Assembly (NCBI GenBank): GCA_001464275.1
Contig: LNFL01000130.1
Coordinates: 1-64,000, forward strand
From: Actinobacteria bacterium Ga0077560
GTDB lineage: Bacteria > Actinomycetota > Thermoleophilia > Miltoncostaeales > Miltoncostaeaceae
Direction of reading: 5' to 3'
Length of the DNA: 64,000 bases
How positions within the stretch are numbered: the stretch's first letter is position 1; the number at the start of each line of letters is the position of its first letter. The notes beneath the pieces are model-generated. The model was not told where the DNA came from. It made no database searches and was given only the letters and a program-made list of their open reading frames with translations. A program made the translations under genes and the position numbers. This document shows, one piece after another, positions 2,179-56,109 of the stretch.

Positions 2179-2331
2179 GTCGGGGGCCTGTCCGGGGGCA
2201 CGGGGCTCCTGTTGCTTCCACGCCGTCCCGGATCCGGGGCACGGCGGGCCGCCGCGGACTCTTGCACCGGTCCGCGAAATTCCCAACAGACGTCCGTCCA
2301 GTTCGTCTGCCGGGGGATGGTCGGGAGGGTC

Positions 2332-2337
2332 TATGGT
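2332..2337 (+). promoter_or_regulatory. -10 hexamer TATGGT, leaderless start at 2344
   Basis: TATGGT lies 6 nt before a GTG, so transcription would begin at or next to the start codon. This spacing decides the start of the downstream gene. No clear -35 box. Confidence 0.5.
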
Positions 2338-2343
2338 CCGGGT

Positions 2344-2868
2344 GTGCGCCGCCGCGCCGACACCGCCCGGACTCCGGAAACCGCGCCGGCTCAGGCGCCG
2401 GCGCTCGACGGGGTCGCCCCGGAGCCCGCACCGCCGGCGCTCATCGAGGCCGTGGACGTGACCGTGGTCCAGGAGCTGCGGGCCCGTGGCTTCACCGGCG
2501 AGCTTCCAGAGCTCAGGCGCCTCGGACCGGACCGGGTGGACCTGATCAGCATCCGGCCGTCCGGCGAAGGCGTGCACATCCTGGCGGCATCGCACCGGCC
2601 CGGCCGGCATCTGCGCCCGGACGCGACGCTGTCGCTCCAGGTGGATGGCCGTGCGCCGGCACGGCACGCGCCGAGGTCCGGCACGCCTGAGGATCCGAAC
2701 GCGCGCCGGCGCTGGCAGGCGTTCTGGCCCGAGGATCACGCGCGCGGTCCCCGGCCGAATGAGGCCCTGCCGTTCCGGCACCCGTCGGTGGTGGCCCTGG
2801 AGGCCTGGACCCTGATCCAGGAGCGCGTGATGCCCTTCTGGGAGGGTGGACCGCACGAGGGCCGCTGA
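2344..2868 (+). CDS. Hypothetical protein, weak resemblance to DUF4304
   Basis: A 174-residue soluble protein of unknown function. After a Pro/Ala-rich N-terminal stretch of ~30 residues it has a pattern like DUF4304 proteins: a helix ending in LRARGFTGE, then an R-L/V-D-L-I-S-I strand, and near the C-terminus the segment PSVVALEAWTLIQE. The family link is tentative. I chose GTG 2344 because a -10-like TATGGT sits 6 nt upstream; an in-frame ATG at 2317 would lie upstream of that promoter. It is divergent from the GGDEF/EAL gene. Codon use is G+C-rich like the core genome, unlike the next region. Confidence 0.6.
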   Translation: MRRRADTARTPETAPAQAPALDGVAPEPAPPALIEAVDVTVVQELRARGFTGELPELRRLGPDRVDLISIRPSGEGVHILAASHRPGRHLRPDATLSLQVDGRAPARHAPRSGTPEDPNARRRWQAFWPEDHARGPRPNEALPFRHPSVVALEAWTLIQERVMPFWEGGPHEGR

Positions 2869-3215
2869 GGGGGCGCCCGTTCCAGCAATGCGACAGAACA
2901 TCACTTCTGGTGCGTCAAGAGGCGGCGCAGCGGCATCCCAATCCAACCTTCGTTCTGCCACGGCGTCGGCGCTCCCTGGTCCAACGGCGCCCAAGGGCAG
3001 CGGACGGGCAAACGACGACGGGCTCGCGATACCGATAACGGACGGGCCACGGCTGGCAGGTCCTGGTCAACCAGGGCGTCGATATTGATCTGCTGTCTGA
3101 GCTGGGTGCCAACCGACGACAGGTACGCCGCCTCAGAACAGGTCGTCGGTACAGTGGCGAACCTCGAGTCCTTGGCTATCGTCCGTCCGGGCACTACCAG
3201 CGAGACTGGGGCGGG
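2869..3215. other. Intergenic stretch of lower G+C, no convincing gene
   Basis: About 350 bases clearly richer in A+T than the flanks. Short ORFs exist on both strands, but none has a recognisable domain or ribosome-binding site. The frame of the next gene stays open upstream to about 3043 without any ATG, GTG or TTG; its last ~58 codons read like protein (for example QGVDIDLLSELGANRR), which may be chance or a decayed coding remnant. TACAGT near 3151 and TATCGT at 3177 are possible -10 boxes for the next gene. Confidence 0.4.
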
Positions 3216-4256
3216 ATGGGAACAACGGCGCGTCTTGCATGCTCGGCGGCACTCGGGGTGTGCGCCGCGACAGCCTTAGCGTTGGGGTCCGCGGAAGCGA
3301 TCACTTCACCTGAGTGCTACTTGATCGACGATAGTGACCAGTCTCAGGTGCTCTCGCCGCTACCGGCACCCCTTCGGTCTACGGGCCCCAGCATGATCCG
3401 TCTGCGGGTGCCGGATCCGTTGCTGGCGAAGCGCACCGGGCTCACCCTCAGGGTTCGGACCGCCGGTGGCGGTGACACGACCTTCAGCCTCGGGCAGTTC
3501 AGTCCCGTAAGCCGGGACGACAGCGGAGTCATCTACGAGCTGCCACTGCAGTACCCCGGTGACCTTACGACCTGGACGCTGACAGTCACAGAAACGCTTC
3601 AGGACCAGGAGACCGGCGGCGTATGCACGCTCAGCTCGGAGCGGAACTTCCTCGCCGGCGGCCCGTCGATCCAGTCGACTGCCCAGCCTGCGGTCGCGGT
3701 GGCCTCCACGATGCGCAACATGCTGTTTGAGCGCAACGGCAGGGTCTTCTCCGAACTGGTGTTCACCGATGTGGGCTTCAAGGCATTGGTTACCCATCGT
3801 GTGACGGTGACCTGCAGGATCGGTGACGACGGCGCCGGGAACCCGGTTGTGCCTGCGGCGGTGCTGCGGATCGTCCCGGCTGCGGTGTCCGGGGCCGGGG
3901 CGAGCGCCGCGCTGGTGTGCGGGTCACCGCCGGCGATGGCGCCGGGCACGACCTGGACAGAGCAGGTCGCCCGTCGGTACCAGGTGAAGGTGCGCGCCAC
4001 CCGGAACGGCCAGCGCCGCTGGCCGTGGCAGGTGCAGCTCGACGGCTTTTCCTCGGTATCCGGTCAGCTGATCATCCGCCATAGCGGATACGACCGCGGT
4101 TATGTGAAGCGCATCTACGAGACGAACTTCGATGCGTACTGGAACACCTGCATCAGCAAGGGGCGCAGGATCTACGCCTCCGGTGGGCGCCTGTACTGCA
4201 TCGGGGAGCGGCTCGGACCGAACTCCACCGCGACAGTGCGACTCACCGGGCCGTGA
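3216..4256 (+). CDS. Secreted six-cysteine protein of unknown family
   Basis: A 346-residue protein I do not recognise. It begins with a classic signal peptide: a short basic N-terminus, a hydrophobic Ala/Leu core and a probable cut after GSAEA near residue 28. The mature part has six cysteines (in PECYLI, GVCTLS, VTCRIG, LVCGSP, NTCISK, LYCIGE), enough for three disulfides, and is rich in beta-type segments. The C-terminal 55 residues are aromatic and basic (RGYVKRIYETNFDAYW). No membrane anchor or sorting signal follows. Base composition is clearly lower in G+C than neighbours, and the gene is isolated between non-coding stretches, suggesting acquisition by transfer. The start is supported by the signal peptide rather than by a strong ribosome-binding site. 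Confidence 0.75.
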   Translation: MGTTARLACSAALGVCAATALALGSAEAITSPECYLIDDSDQSQVLSPLPAPLRSTGPSMIRLRVPDPLLAKRTGLTLRVRTAGGGDTTFSLGQFSPVSRDDSGVIYELPLQYPGDLTTWTLTVTETLQDQETGGVCTLSSERNFLAGGPSIQSTAQPAVAVASTMRNMLFERNGRVFSELVFTDVGFKALVTHRVTVTCRIGDDGAGNPVVPAAVLRIVPAAVSGAGASAALVCGSPPAMAPGTTWTEQVARRYQVKVRATRNGQRRWPWQVQLDGFSSVSGQLIIRHSGYDRGYVKRIYETNFDAYWNTCISKGRRIYASGGRLYCIGERLGPNSTATVRLTGP

Positions 4257-4275
4257 TTGCGCCGGGGTGAGCGCC

Positions 4276-4299
4276 CAGACGGCGGCTAGCCACCGTCTG
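4276..4299. repeat. 24-bp near-perfect palindrome just after the secreted-protein gene
   Basis: Arms CAGACGG (4276-4282) and CCGTCTG (4293-4299) enclose C-GGCT/AGCC-A, so 11 of 12 base pairs match. It starts 20 nt after the stop codon of the gene ending at 4256. It could end transcription, although no T-run follows, or be a protein-binding site. Confidence 0.6.
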
Positions 4300-4410
4300 A
4301 GCAAGGAAGGCCTGGGCGCCTGGATGTCGACCCGAACAACGGGATCCCGGGCCAGCTCGGGTTGGGCGACTCCCCGCCAGCCACCCGGATCAATCGGGAG
4401 CAAGGAAGGC
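4299..4410 (+). repeat. 13-bp direct repeat, two copies 99 bp apart
   Basis: GAGCAAGGAAGGC occurs at 4299-4311 and again at 4398-4410. The first copy begins within the last base of the palindrome's right arm. The whole interval 4257-4606 contains no gene I can support. Confidence 0.5.
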
Positions 4411-4511
4411 ACCCTAGCGAGGGCCAGCGTCGCCGGACGCCTCAGACTGACTGACCGTGGACGAGGCCAAGCGGCCGTAGAACGCAGCGCCTCCGACTAG
4501 GTGAGAATCAA

Positions 4512-4530
4512 CGGCGCCGTCCGGGCGCCG
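4512..4530. repeat. Inverted repeat CGGCGCC / GGCGCCG
   Basis: Perfect 7-bp arms at 4512-4518 and 4524-4530 around a 5-nt loop, in the non-coding stretch upstream of the SRPBCC gene. No T-run follows, so its role as a terminator is uncertain. Confidence 0.4.
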
Positions 4531-4538
4531 GTGCGACT

Positions 4539-4567
4539 ACTGAAACCCATGCGGGTTGGGTATCAGT
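4539..4567. promoter_or_regulatory. Nested inverted repeat upstream of the SRPBCC gene
   Basis: Outer arms ACTGA (4539-4543) and TCAGT (4563-4567) surround an inner hairpin AACCC-ATGC-GGGTT (4544-4557). It lies 40 nt before the start codon at 4607 and includes GTATCAGT, a possible -10 region. It could be an operator or a leader hairpin. Confidence 0.35.
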
Positions 4568-4606
4568 GGGTGACCCCTACCGATGCCGCCGATCTGGAGC
4601 GCCCAT

Positions 4607-5038
4607 ATGCCCACCTATCGCACCACCGTCCCGTCGTCGCTTCCGCCCGAGCGGGCGTTCGACTACATGGCCCGCTTCGAGCACCTCACCGAATGGGACC
4701 CGTCGGCCACCGAGGCGCGGGCACTGGACGGGGATCCCGCGCCCGGGGCGCGATATGACGTGACGGTGAAGTTCGGCAAGGGCGAGCAGCGGCTCCAGTA
4801 CGTGGTCCGCGAGATCGATGCCCCCCGTCGCATCCAGCTGTTCGCCGACGCCGGGCGGTACACGTCGACCGACACGATCACGGTGGCGCCGGACGGGCCG
4901 GGCTCGGCGGTGACCTATGACGCGGTCATCGAGCTGAAGGGCCTCATGAAGCTCCTCTCCCCGGTCATCGCGAGCCGGTTCCGCGCCGCCGGTGACGCCG
5001 CGCGCGACGGGATGCACCGGGCGCTCAACCCCGTGTGA
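4607..5038 (+). CDS. SRPBCC (polyketide cyclase/START-like) family protein
   Basis: A 143-residue single-domain protein of the SRPBCC fold, a helix-grip barrel that binds hydrophobic ligands in the cytoplasm. The family pattern is clear: a first strand (YRTTVPSS), the helix PPERAFDYMARFEHLTEWDPS, then alternating strands and a long C-terminal helix. The substrate cannot be inferred. I chose ATG 4607 because GGAG at 4596-4599 sits 7 nt upstream; an earlier in-frame start at 4583 has no such site. Its TGA is followed by non-coding sequence before rsgA. Confidence 0.8.
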   Translation: MPTYRTTVPSSLPPERAFDYMARFEHLTEWDPSATEARALDGDPAPGARYDVTVKFGKGEQRLQYVVREIDAPRRIQLFADAGRYTSTDTITVAPDGPGSAVTYDAVIELKGLMKLLSPVIASRFRAAGDAARDGMHRALNPV

Positions 5039-5193
5039 GCCGGCGGCGCGACGGCCGCCGCGGGCGGGCCGGGGGGCGCCGTGAACGGTTCCCCCCGCGC
5101 TACGCTGGAGACGCATGGCGATCCCTTCGACGCCCACCTCCGCCGGCGGGTAGCCCCGGCCCGTGGCGGAGCGGCCACCGGCGTCCGGTCCGC

Positions 5194-6186
5194 ATGCGTG
5201 ACGACGAGGATGGTGACGGGTTGCAGGGCGAACGGACCACCGCTCCCGCCCGGGTGATCGCCGAGCGGCGGGGTCGTTGGCTGGTCGAGACCGAGGAGGG
5301 CGACCGCCTGCTGCTGCCCGCCCGCGGGCGGCTGCGGAGGGACGGCGTGTCGCCCGTCGTCGGTGACCGCGTCACGGTCGAGGGCGGCGCCACGATCGCC
5401 GCCGTGCTTCCGCGCGGGGGGACGATCGTGCGGCGGCATGCCGGCCGTGAGGCGGCCGGTCAGGTGCTCGCCGCAAACGTCGACGTGGCGGTGCTGGCCG
5501 ACGCCCTGCCCACCCCCAACCTGCGCCGTCTGGAGCGGTTCGCGGCGCTGGCGGCCGCCGGTGGCGTGCGGATCCTCGTGGTGCTGACCAAGGCCGACCG
5601 CGATCCCGACCACGCCGGAACGGCGGCCCGGGTGGCCCGGCGCCTGGGGACTCCCGACGTGGTCGCCGTGTCGTCGCTGGACGGGACCGGCATGGATGCG
5701 CTCGGCGCCGCGCTCCGGGCGGGCACCACGGCGGTGCTCCTGGGCCCGTCGGGCGCGGGCAAGTCCACGCTGGTCAACGCCCTGCTGGGTGATGACCGCC
5801 GGCGCACCGCCCCGGTTCGCGCCACCGACGACCGCGGACGGCACACCACGGTCGGGCGGGAGCTGATCGTGCTGCCCTCCGGGGCGTACATCATCGACAC
5901 GCCCGGCATCCGCGAGGTGGGCATGTGGGATGACGGGACGGGCGCCGCGTTCGCCGAGATCGCCGCGCTGGCCACCCGGTGCCGATTCTCGGATTGCACC
6001 CACGACACGGAGCCGGGCTGCGCGGTGCGGGACGCCGTGCCGCCCGAGCGACTCGACTCATGGCGGACCCTGCGCCGAGAGGAGGCGTGGATCGACGACC
6101 GCCGCGCGGCCTCCCGCGCTCGCGATCAATGGGGCAAGCGCATCGCGAAGGCACGGCGGGCGATCCACCGGGGTGAGCCGCGGTGA
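5194..6186 (+). CDS. rsgA: Ribosome small subunit-dependent GTPase RsgA
   Basis: Circularly permuted GTPase that checks late 30S subunit assembly near the decoding site. Order seen: OB-fold (~10-75), G4 motif (VLTKAD) ahead of G1 (GPSGAGKS), G2 region (RGRHTT), G3 (DTPG), then a C-terminal zinc module with the CRFSDCTHDTEPGC pattern. The 330-residue length is normal. An upstream GTG at 5035 would add about 50 Arg/Pro-rich residues with no family support, so ATG 5194 is preferred; TTG 5221 is also possible. The gene converges on the amidase gene across a short hairpin. Confidence 0.93.
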   Translation: MRDDEDGDGLQGERTTAPARVIAERRGRWLVETEEGDRLLLPARGRLRRDGVSPVVGDRVTVEGGATIAAVLPRGGTIVRRHAGREAAGQVLAANVDVAVLADALPTPNLRRLERFAALAAAGGVRILVVLTKADRDPDHAGTAARVARRLGTPDVVAVSSLDGTGMDALGAALRAGTTAVLLGPSGAGKSTLVNALLGDDRRRTAPVRATDDRGRHTTVGRELIVLPSGAYIIDTPGIREVGMWDDGTGAAFAEIAALATRCRFSDCTHDTEPGCAVRDAVPPERLDSWRTLRREEAWIDDRRAASRARDQWGKRIAKARRAIHRGEPR

Positions 6187-53865: not shown

Positions 53866-56064
53866 TCAGTCCTCGGCGGTCAGACGACGGCGGCGGCGGC
53901 GCGGGGGCCGGTCGGCGTCGCCCTCGCCGACGTCGAGGCCGTCCCCGACGCCGACCTCGGCCGGGGCCACGTCCTCCATGCCGACGATCCGCAGGCCGAT
54001 CCGGCCGCGGGCCTTGTCCACCTCGACCACCGTGACGTCCACGGTGTCGCCGCGGTTGATGACGTCCTCCACCTTGTCCACCCGGCCCGGGGCCAGGTTG
54101 GAGATGTGCAGGAGGCCGTCGACGCCCTTGGTGAGCTCCACGAACGCGCCGAACGTGGTCGTCTTGACGACCTTCGCCCCGGTGAACGTGTCGCCGACCT
54201 CGACGTCCTTGGTCATGGCCCGGATGGCCTCGACACAGGCGTCGGCCTTGAGGCCCTCGACGCCGTAGACGTTCACGGTGCCGTCATCCTCGATGGAGAT
54301 CTCCACCTCGTACTCGGCCTCGAGGCCGCGGATGGTCTCGCCGCCCTTGCCGATGACGGTGCCGATCCGGTCCGGGTCGATCTTGATCGCCGTGATGCGC
54401 GGCGCCCAGTCGCTGAGCTCCTCGCGCGGCGCCGAGATCGTCTCGCCCATGATCCCCAGGATGTGCAGGCGGGCCTTGCGGGCCTGCTCCAGCGCGTCCT
54501 TGAGGACCCCGAACGTGACGCCCTGGACCTTGTTGTCCATCTGCAGGGCGGTGATGCCCTCGGACGTGCCGGCCACCTTGAAGTCCATGTCGCCGAGGTG
54601 GTCCTCGTCGCCCTGGATGTCGGTGAGGATGATGAGGTCGTCACCCTCCTTGATGAGGCCCATCGCGATGCCGGCCACCGGCCGGGTGATCGGGACGCCG
54701 GCGTCGAGCAGCGCGAGGCTGGACCCGCAGACGGAGGCCATCGAGGACGAGCCGTTGCTCTCCAGGGTCTCGGAGACGATCCGCAGCGTGTACGGGAAGG
54801 TCACCTCGTCCGGGATCACCGGCACCAGGGCCCGCTCGGCGAGCGCGCCGTGGCCGATGTCGCGGCGCTTGGGGCCGCGCATGAACCCGGTCTCCCCGAC
54901 CGAGAACGGCGGGAAGTTGTAGTGGTGGATGTAGCGCTTCGAGGTCTCGATGCCGATGCCGTCGATGCGCTGGGCGTCCTTGAGCGTGCCCAGGGCGAGC
55001 AGGCTCATGACCTGGGTCTCACCGCGGGTGAACAGGCCGGACCCGTGGGTGCGCGGCGCGACGCCGACCTCGGCGGTGATCTGCCGGATCTCGTCGCTCT
55101 TGCGGCCGTCGGGGCGGTGCTTGTCCACCGCGATGCGCTTCCGGATGATCTGCTTCTGCAGGGCCTCGAACGCGCCGCTGAAGGACGCCTTCTCCTCCGG
55201 GGTGGGCTCGTCGCCGAGCACCTTCGCGGCGGCGGCGGCCTTGACGTCGGACACCTTGTCGCGGCGCTCCAGCTTGCCCTGCTCGAGGGTGGCCTCCTCC
55301 AGCTCCTTCAGGACCGCGTCGCGGACCTTCTCGAGCATGGCGGGGTCGACGGCGATGGCCTCGACCTCCCACTTCGGCTTGCCGGCCTTCGCGCGGAGCT
55401 CGTCCTGCGCGGCGCACAGCTTGCGGATCTCGTCGTGGGCGATCGCCAGGGCCTCGAGGAGCGATTCCTCGTCGACCTCCTTGGCGCCGGCCTCGACCAT
55501 GGAGATCGCGTCGACGGTGCCGGCGACGACCAGGTCCAGGTCGGACTCGGCCAGCTCCTGCAGCGTCGGGTTGATGATGAAGTCGTCACCGATCAGGCCG
55601 ATGCGCACCGCGCCGACCGGACCCTGGAACGGGAGGTCGGAGATGGTGAGCGCGGCGGACGCGCCGTTGATGCAGAGCACGTCGAAGGCGTTCACCTGGT
55701 CGACGCTCAGCACGGTCGCGACGACCTGGACCTCGTTGCGGAAGCCCTTCGGCCACAGGGGCCGGATCGGGCGGTCGGTCATGCGGGCGGTGAGGGTGGC
55801 GCGATCACTCGGCCGGCTCTCCCGCTTGATGAACCCGCCGGGCAGCTTGCCCGCCGCGTACATCCGCTCCTCGACGTCGACGGTGAGGGGGAAGAAGTCC
55901 GCACCCTCCCGCGCGTTGCGCGCACCCGTGGCGGTGACCAGGACCATGTTGTCCCCCGACCGCACCACGACCGCGCCATTGGCCTGCTTGGCCAGCTTGC
56001 CGGTCTCGAACGTCACCGGCGTGTCGCCCACGTCCGCCTTCACAAGCACTACGTCCATCATCAT
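53866..56064 (-). CDS. pnp: Polyribonucleotide nucleotidyltransferase
   Basis: A 732-residue phosphorolytic 3'-5' exoribonuclease. Two RNase PH domains flank a helical domain; the second has FTRGETQVMSLLALGT and the catalytic GDMDFKVAGT region; a KH domain (VIGKGGETIRGLE) and an S1 domain (VGDTFTGAKVVKTTTFGAFVEL) follow, then an Arg-rich tail. Start among three successive ATGs at 56064-56056; the first has GGAG 6 nt upstream. Downstream of rpsO with a hairpin between them. Confidence 0.95.
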   Translation of the reverse strand: MMMDVVLVKADVGDTPVTFETGKLAKQANGAVVVRSGDNMVLVTATGARNAREGADFFPLTVDVEERMYAAGKLPGGFIKRESRPSDRATLTARMTDRPIRPLWPKGFRNEVQVVATVLSVDQVNAFDVLCINGASAALTISDLPFQGPVGAVRIGLIGDDFIINPTLQELAESDLDLVVAGTVDAISMVEAGAKEVDEESLLEALAIAHDEIRKLCAAQDELRAKAGKPKWEVEAIAVDPAMLEKVRDAVLKELEEATLEQGKLERRDKVSDVKAAAAAKVLGDEPTPEEKASFSGAFEALQKQIIRKRIAVDKHRPDGRKSDEIRQITAEVGVAPRTHGSGLFTRGETQVMSLLALGTLKDAQRIDGIGIETSKRYIHHYNFPPFSVGETGFMRGPKRRDIGHGALAERALVPVIPDEVTFPYTLRIVSETLESNGSSSMASVCGSSLALLDAGVPITRPVAGIAMGLIKEGDDLIILTDIQGDEDHLGDMDFKVAGTSEGITALQMDNKVQGVTFGVLKDALEQARKARLHILGIMGETISAPREELSDWAPRITAIKIDPDRIGTVIGKGGETIRGLEAEYEVEISIEDDGTVNVYGVEGLKADACVEAIRAMTKDVEVGDTFTGAKVVKTTTFGAFVELTKGVDGLLHISNLAPGRVDKVEDVINRGDTVDVTVVEVDKARGRIGLRIVGMEDVAPAEVGVGDGLDVGEGDADRPPRRRRRRLTAED

Positions 56065-56109
56065 CCTCGTCTCCGCCGTGCCGGCTCTCGGTGGCACGGC
56101 TCATCCAAG

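What the first reader, a model, noticed from the sequence alone, without database searches (positions are those of the whole stretch)
2869..4606. Low-G+C island with a secreted six-cysteine protein
Between core-like genes lies ~1.7 kb of markedly lower G+C with a single gene for an exported protein with six cysteines and no recognised family, flanked by 350-bp non-coding stretches on each side. The upstream part looks like decayed coding sequence. This is typical of an acquired gene; an effector, adhesin or toxin-like role is possible.
Basis: partly seen in the sequence, partly recalled or inferred. Interest (0 to 1): 0.55.

Follow-up and report, generated by a model that had tools for sequence, protein, structure and literature searches.

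The report
Patchy secreted six-cysteine protein gene
A low-G+C stretch in a Miltoncostaea-family bacterium carries one gene for an exported, probably disulfide-braced protein belonging to a small, apparently unnamed family scattered among a few relatives, one copy on a plasmid; its job is unknown, most likely binding something outside the cell.

Summary
2869-4606 is 66.6% G+C against a window mean of 74.1%, and the window's lowest 1738-bp stretch starts at 2880. It holds one convincing gene (3216-4256, 346 aa): signal peptide by eye, six mature cysteines, no Pfam, NCBIfam or PHROG family. It is not an orphan: motif-profile searches found three relatives in the same class, in G025 (Miltoncostaea oceani, on its 815-kb plasmid), G276 and G198. 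All four end with a conserved C-terminal motif whose two cysteines lie exactly 16 apart. G276 and G198 keep all six cysteines; G025 keeps the last four and lacks the N-terminal domain. Neighbours differ in each genome; the one same-genus genome searched has no convincing copy. So the gene is accessory and probably acquired, but direct proof of transfer (empty site, donor) is missing. The 'decayed coding' reading of the upstream flank is unsupported. The downstream flank holds a partial, diverged copy of a dispersed near-palindromic repeat of this genome. Best guess: a secreted or surface beta-rich protein that binds a ligand; the function is inferred. AlphaFold models were poor (mean pLDDT 36-41), so the fold is not established. 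A new small family, modest interest.

The parts
2869..4606 (.). low-G+C island
   Evidence: G+C 0.666 against 0.741 window mean; contains nearly all of the lowest 1738-bp stretch, which starts at 2880
2869..3215 (.). upstream stretch, no coding signal in any frame
   Evidence: six-frame codon scores all negative; the 97-aa minus ORF inside it has no Pfam match; no match to the genomic repeat
3216..4256 (+). gene for the 346-aa exported six-cysteine protein
   Evidence: best frame by codon score; three relatives
3216..3299 (+). signal peptide, residues 1-28, likely cut after A-E-A
   Evidence: read from the sequence; no predictor run. The three relatives also start with a signal-peptide-like stretch
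3315..3665 (+). N-terminal domain with C34 and C137, possibly immunoglobulin-like
   Evidence: comparable cysteine pair in G276 and G198, absent in G025; weak structural matches, most over residues about 38-150
3798..4253 (+). C-terminal module with C200, C235, C312, C328
   Evidence: cysteine pattern kept in all four proteins
4110..4199 (+). conserved C-terminal motif, residues 299-328 (predicted helix plus beta-hairpin, C312 to C328)
   Evidence: leave-one-out profile scores 20.0-51.0 bits; best of 5000 shuffles per protein at most 10.4 (2253 to 2828 of the 5000 got a reported score)
4421..4546 (.). partial diverged copy of a dispersed near-palindromic genomic repeat
   Evidence: nhmmer E 3.1e-12, the only significant copy in the window; 71-74% identity to L074, L077 and L079 over 113-126 columns, and two pieces to L081 (103 columns at 71%, 33 at 88%)
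2344..2868 (+). upstream neighbour gene, no relatives found
   Evidence: 0 of 60 other genomes; no Pfam match
4607..5038 (+). downstream neighbour gene, Polyketide_cyc2 (SRPBCC-type)
   Evidence: Pfam E 1.8e-15; 22 of 60 other genomes at E<=1e-5

Best explanation
An accessory, probably horizontally acquired gene for a protein exported by the general secretion route. Outside the membrane it probably folds into two beta-rich domains braced by three disulfides (C34-C137, C200-C235, C312-C328). The conserved C-terminal helix-and-hairpin, closed by the last disulfide, would be the constant functional surface, and the protein would work by binding a ligand (cell surface, sugar or protein) rather than by catalysis. 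Shown: the family, the cysteine pattern, the patchy occurrence in the genomes searched. By eye: the signal peptide. Inferred: disulfide pairing, fold, binding role, transfer.
For: Composition and codon use are atypical. Three relatives in G025, G276 and G198. Cysteine spacings agree: first pair 103, 96 and 74 apart in window, G276 and G198 (absent in G025); second pair 35, 31, 29 and 35 apart in window, G276, G198 and G025; last pair 16 apart in all four. Each motif scores 20.0-51.0 bits with a profile of the other three, best shuffle 10.4. The G025 copy lies on the 815,643-bp plasmid of M. oceani. The same-genus genome G001 has no match with the motif profiles; with the whole protein it gives one weak hit (E 0.024, 14.2 bits), which lacks the motif. 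Neighbours differ: GmrSD/DUF262 and AAA ATPase genes in G025, a T5orf172 gene in G198, a Peptidase_C26 gene in G276.
Against: Both AlphaFold models are poor (mean pLDDT 40.5 and 36.3), so the fold is a guess; the best structural match (Z 5.4, rmsd 6.4) lies in the range given there for mere common arrangements. Nothing shows a ligand. Transfer is not proved: no tRNA or clear flanking repeat, no donor, and the empty site could not be looked for; the M. oceani plasmid is typed non-mobilizable. The three relatives also have G+C a little below their surroundings (0.680 against 0.699; 0.580 against 0.624; 0.613 against 0.619), so part of the low G+C may be due to the protein's own make-up. G198's membership is weaker (E 2.1e-4 per genome in a search of 199 genomes).
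Confidence: 0.45

Rival explanations
1. A secreted toxin or effector used against competing microbes, carried in accessory DNA.
For: Exported, cysteine-rich, patchy, near accessory genes in two relatives. The downstream neighbour has a sub-threshold match to NCBIfam's Rv0910-type toxin family (42.1 bits, cut-off 100), though its Pfam match is to the common SRPBCC-type fold.
Against: No toxin or enzyme family reached for the protein itself or its relatives in Pfam, NCBIfam or PHROGs. Neither flank shows a coding frame that could be an immunity gene. Secretion-system genes were not searched for.
Confidence: 0.15
2. A vertically inherited, fast-evolving secreted protein lost in most relatives; low G+C comes from amino-acid make-up and the adjoining repeat rather than from transfer.
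For: All four copies found are in one class; a 396-genome sample of the phylum gave no further one. All three relatives have G+C slightly below their surroundings. The repeat copies elsewhere have G+C 0.649-0.665 and the remnant here 0.683.
Against: Very scattered occurrence, a plasmid copy, different neighbours, no convincing copy in the one same-genus genome.
Confidence: 0.25
3. A structural cell-envelope protein (wall or surface layer component) without a specific ligand.
For: Beta-rich prediction, secreted, disulfide pattern.
Against: Too rare to be a general envelope part; no wall anchor or transmembrane end seen by eye.
Confidence: 0.1
4. A decaying remnant gene with no present function.
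For: Codon score lower than all 36 reference genes of the window; sits beside a repeat remnant.
Against: 346 codons open, all six cysteines and the motif intact.
Confidence: 0.08

Closest known systems
WP_217924860.1, hypothetical protein of the Miltoncostaea oceani plasmid NZ_CP064357.1
   Same: signal-peptide-like start, same C-terminal motif (62-64% identity over about 33 residues), the last four cysteines with the same spacings
   Different: 244 aa, lacks the N-terminal domain and its cysteine pair; similarity outside the motif is low; different neighbours
Immunoglobulin / fibronectin-III-like beta-sandwich domains (as a fold)
   Same: the predicted strands of residues 38-150 resemble them loosely (best Z 5.4)
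   Different: no sequence family match; low-confidence model, so not filed as a member

Membership tests
Family of the four Thermoleophilia six-cysteine secreted proteins (defined here) | signal peptide at the start | tested here: inconclusive
   signal-peptide-like N-terminus in all four by eye; no predictor available
Family of the four Thermoleophilia six-cysteine secreted proteins (defined here) | C-terminal motif with two cysteines 16 apart | tested here: met
   4 of 4; the relatives were found through this motif, so it is partly circular. 0 of 43 weak matches from the same searches carry it
Family of the four Thermoleophilia six-cysteine secreted proteins (defined here) | three cysteine pairs in the mature protein | tested here: met
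   window, G276 and G198 have six mature cysteines; G025 has only four
Any Pfam, NCBIfam or PHROG family | match above the curated cut-off (Pfam, NCBIfam) or a significant E-value (PHROGs) | tested here: not met
   window protein: 0 Pfam and 0 NCBIfam families up to E 10, best PHROG E 0.14. Three relatives: only Pfam matches below cut-off (E 0.018 to 5), 0 NCBIfam up to E 1, best PHROG E 0.071
Immunoglobulin-like beta-sandwich proteins | beta-sandwich fold of the N-terminal domain | tested here: inconclusive
   models of mean pLDDT 40.5 and 36.3; Foldseek 0 matches at E<=0.001, best 0.02; best Z 5.4
Lipoproteins | lipobox ending in cysteine at the signal-peptide cut | tested here: inconclusive
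   by eye only: the cysteines at 9 and 16 lie in R-L-A-C and L-G-V-C, which do not fit the lipobox consensus as I recall it
Phage or prophage cargo | relatives in phage records or phage genes alongside | tested here: not met
   no match in phages or viral contigs; the two flanking genes, the only neighbours searched, show no phage family in Pfam
Integrated mobile element | tRNA or attachment repeats and an integrase or transposase | tested here: inconclusive
   no tRNA in the window; only short, chance-like repeats across the island; the window's other genes were not searched for integrases

The most novel reading that the evidence does not exclude
A so far unnamed family of plasmid- and island-borne secreted proteins in Thermoleophilia, built on a new disulfide-clasped C-terminal binding module (D-x-[YF]-[WV]-[ND]-x-C-[ILV]-x14-C, drawn from these four proteins) joined to a variable or absent N-terminal domain, used to recognise partners or competitors outside the cell.
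Probability: 0.3. Interest if true: 0.4.

Novelty: new member of a known kind. Interest (0 to 1): 0.27.

Why it matters
It turns an apparent single-genome gene into a small family with a testable signature (motif plus three cysteine pairs), one copy of it in a named pure-culture strain. If the module binds a defined ligand, it would give a function to some of the nameless secreted proteins of this poorly studied class.

Tried and rejected
Searches that found no relative: genome contigs with the whole protein and with motif profile A2 (both start from short exact peptide patterns, so distant copies can be missed); viral contigs four times; phages by protein; PDB by motif profile A7. Rfam gave nothing for 2200-5200 up to E 1. 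The plasmid searches found only M. oceani.

Weak hits not counted as relatives; 12 of 101 genomes at E<=1; own and G025 accepted, ten at E 0.015-0.27 not. (G025 protein as query): 8 of 101 at E<=0.1; own and G025 kept, six not; 23 of 396 at E<=0.1; own only accepted; the other 22 genomes (25 places, E 0.004-0.095) not; 3 of 199; G276 (already in the profile) and G198 accepted; G110 rejected, its 12-residue match lacks the cysteines; 3 of 129; G198 and G276 are in the profile by construction; G073 rejected. I read all 43 rejected places in their right strand and frame: 0 of 43 carries the motif pattern, while 4 of 4 family members do; the pattern was drawn from those four. A few look like the motif in part (for example L040, L050, L055) but sit in open frames of 22 to 52 codons and lack the pattern. 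An earlier reading of seven loci took four minus-strand ones (L016, L018, L039, L088) on the wrong strand; one search replaces it. In the DNA alignment one row (C104) was also on the wrong strand; I do not use that alignment. The genome sets of these calls overlap, so they must not be added up.

Fold: two AlphaFold runs were poor. Foldseek gave no match at E<=0.001; the VIA second look gave 1 of 1000 chains at Z>=5. The C-terminal module's fold stays untested, since its own model was too poor to search with.

Upstream flank as decayed coding: rejected. Insertion by a bounded element: no support. Synteny through the downstream neighbour: none of nine fetched relatives' loci (L023-L031, 1.5 kb or less on either side) carries the other five tested proteins of the window's neighbourhood at E<=1e-4. 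Literature: one search for Miltoncostaea (9 papers, listing only) and one for the accession and locus tag of the M. oceani protein (0 papers); no paper was opened.

Full report
Where it is. The window is the first 64 kb of a 73.8-kb contig (C130) of a 3.8-Mb, 193-contig genome, 84% complete. A genome marked 'same family' (G025) has an 815,643-bp contig with the same match position as Miltoncostaea oceani plasmid NZ_CP064357.1 and 100% protein identity there, so I take G025 to be M. oceani and the window to be from its family (Miltoncostaeaceae, Thermoleophilia, Actinomycetota; lineage). This is an inference.

The island. 2869-4606 has G+C 0.666 against 0.741 for the window; the lowest 1738-bp stretch of the window starts at 2880, and the island's tetranucleotide make-up is farther from the window's than that of 312 of 312 sampled stretches.

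The gene. 3216-4256 encodes 346 aa. It is the best of the six frames by a codon score trained on the window's genes (-0.057, next best -0.259), yet lies below all 36 reference genes (0.171 to 0.571); these were chosen partly by GC3 above 0.86, so the gap is exaggerated. The N-terminus reads by eye as a signal peptide with an A-E-A cut site. Cysteines: 9 and 16 in the signal peptide; 34, 137, 200, 235, 312, 328 in the mature protein. No Pfam or NCBIfam family up to E 10; best PHROG E 0.14.

The family. Among 101 genomes (own and 100 relatives) only G025 gave a clear further hit, over residues 296-328 (64% identity, E 2.2e-7), in a 244-aa protein. A two-row motif profile then found G276 in a 399-genome sample of the class (E 8.7e-11), a 305-aa protein. 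A three-row profile found G198 among 199 relatives of G276 (E 2.1e-4), a 297-aa protein. Left out one at a time, each motif scores 39.3 (window), 41.3 (G025), 51.0 (G276) and 20.0 bits (G198) with a profile of the other three; the best of 5000 shuffles per protein was at most 10.4 (2253 to 2828 of each 5000 got a reported score). Four of the six cysteines lie outside the searched motif and agree independently: G276 has 32, 128, 174, 205, 281, 297 and G198 has 36, 110, 151, 180, 266, 282 in the mature part; G025 has only the last four (67, 102, 188, 204) and lacks the N-terminal domain; the last two are 16 apart in all four. I take this as a real family; the 43 weaker places in the same searches carry no such motif (0 of 43).

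Occurrence and surroundings. Same-genus G001 (96% complete) gave no match with the motif profiles; with the whole protein it gave one weak hit (E 0.024) without the motif. In a 396-genome sample of the phylum only the window's own genome gave a convincing match. Neighbours differ in each genome: GmrSD/DUF262 and AAA ATPase genes on the M. oceani plasmid, which is typed non-mobilizable, a T5orf172 gene in G198, a Peptidase_C26 gene in G276. In the window the upstream neighbour 2344-2868 has no relative in 60 of 60 other genomes; the downstream Polyketide_cyc2 gene has one in 22 of 60, not in G001 or G025, and nine of those loci do not carry the window's other tested neighbours. So both immediate neighbours are variable too, and 'between core-like genes' is only half right.

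The flanks. Upstream, no frame shows coding signal. Downstream, 4421-4546 matches a profile of a dispersed repeat of the same genome (nhmmer E 3.1e-12, only significant copy in the window). Copies in contigs C104, C162 and C163 are 606-686 bp; the C182 copy spans 918 bp with part of it doubled. They are 84-92% alike over pieces of 218-653 bp, with inverted arms 73-80% alike; the one copy folded whole gives one long hairpin. Rfam gave no match at a family's gathering score in these loci; the two weaker ones were Cis90_sRNA (31.7 bits, gathering 50, outside the repeat) and mir-9209 (22.2 bits, gathering 90, E 0.9). The copies' G+C is 0.649-0.665, the remnant's 0.683, so the remnant lowers the island's G+C a little in its own right.

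Acquired or not. For: composition, codon use, patchiness, plasmid copy, changing neighbours. Against or missing: no tRNA or clear boundary repeat, no donor, no empty site seen, integrases not searched for beyond the immediate neighbours, and the relatives too have G+C slightly below their surroundings, so amino-acid make-up plays a part. I judge acquisition likely, not shown.

How it may work. Exported, folded outside the membrane, three disulfides in the order first-second, third-fourth, fifth-sixth (inferred from spacing and from G025 losing the first pair together with the N-terminal domain). The conserved C-terminal stretch is predicted as a helix and a hairpin in both AlphaFold runs, at pLDDT of roughly 35-50. 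Residues 38-150 loosely resemble immunoglobulin-type domains (best row Z 5.4); a Z under 8 may mean only a common arrangement. Lacking any enzyme signature, a binding protein is the best guess (0.45); toxin or effector 0.15.

Verdict. A new small family of a familiar kind, patchy secreted beta-rich proteins, with modest interest (0.27). Two literature searches gave no paper naming the M. oceani protein (listings only, none opened).

Noticed in passing
L077:1003-1688, L074:1456-2112, L079:770-1687, L081:977-1582; remnant at window 4421-4546: Dispersed near-palindromic repeat of about 600-700 bp (one copy 918 bp) in this genome, at least four long copies; one copy folded whole gives a long hairpin; short GGATCACTCC-like units recur at the ends; no Rfam match at gathering score.
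   Followed up: partly
window 2344-2868: Upstream neighbour gene also lacks relatives in 60 of 60 other genomes and has no Pfam match.
   Followed up: partly
window 4607-5038: Downstream SRPBCC-type gene has a sub-threshold match to NCBIfam's Rv0910 toxin family (E 8.1e-11, 42.1 bits, cut-off 100).
   Followed up: no
L089:6836-7624: In G198, about 6 kb from the family member, another protein that by eye looks secreted, beta-rich and cysteine-containing, of unknown role.
   Followed up: no
window 54014-55751: Second-lowest G+C stretch of the window (0.690), inside one long minus-strand ORF (53866-56097) with ordinary GC3 of 0.98.
   Followed up: no
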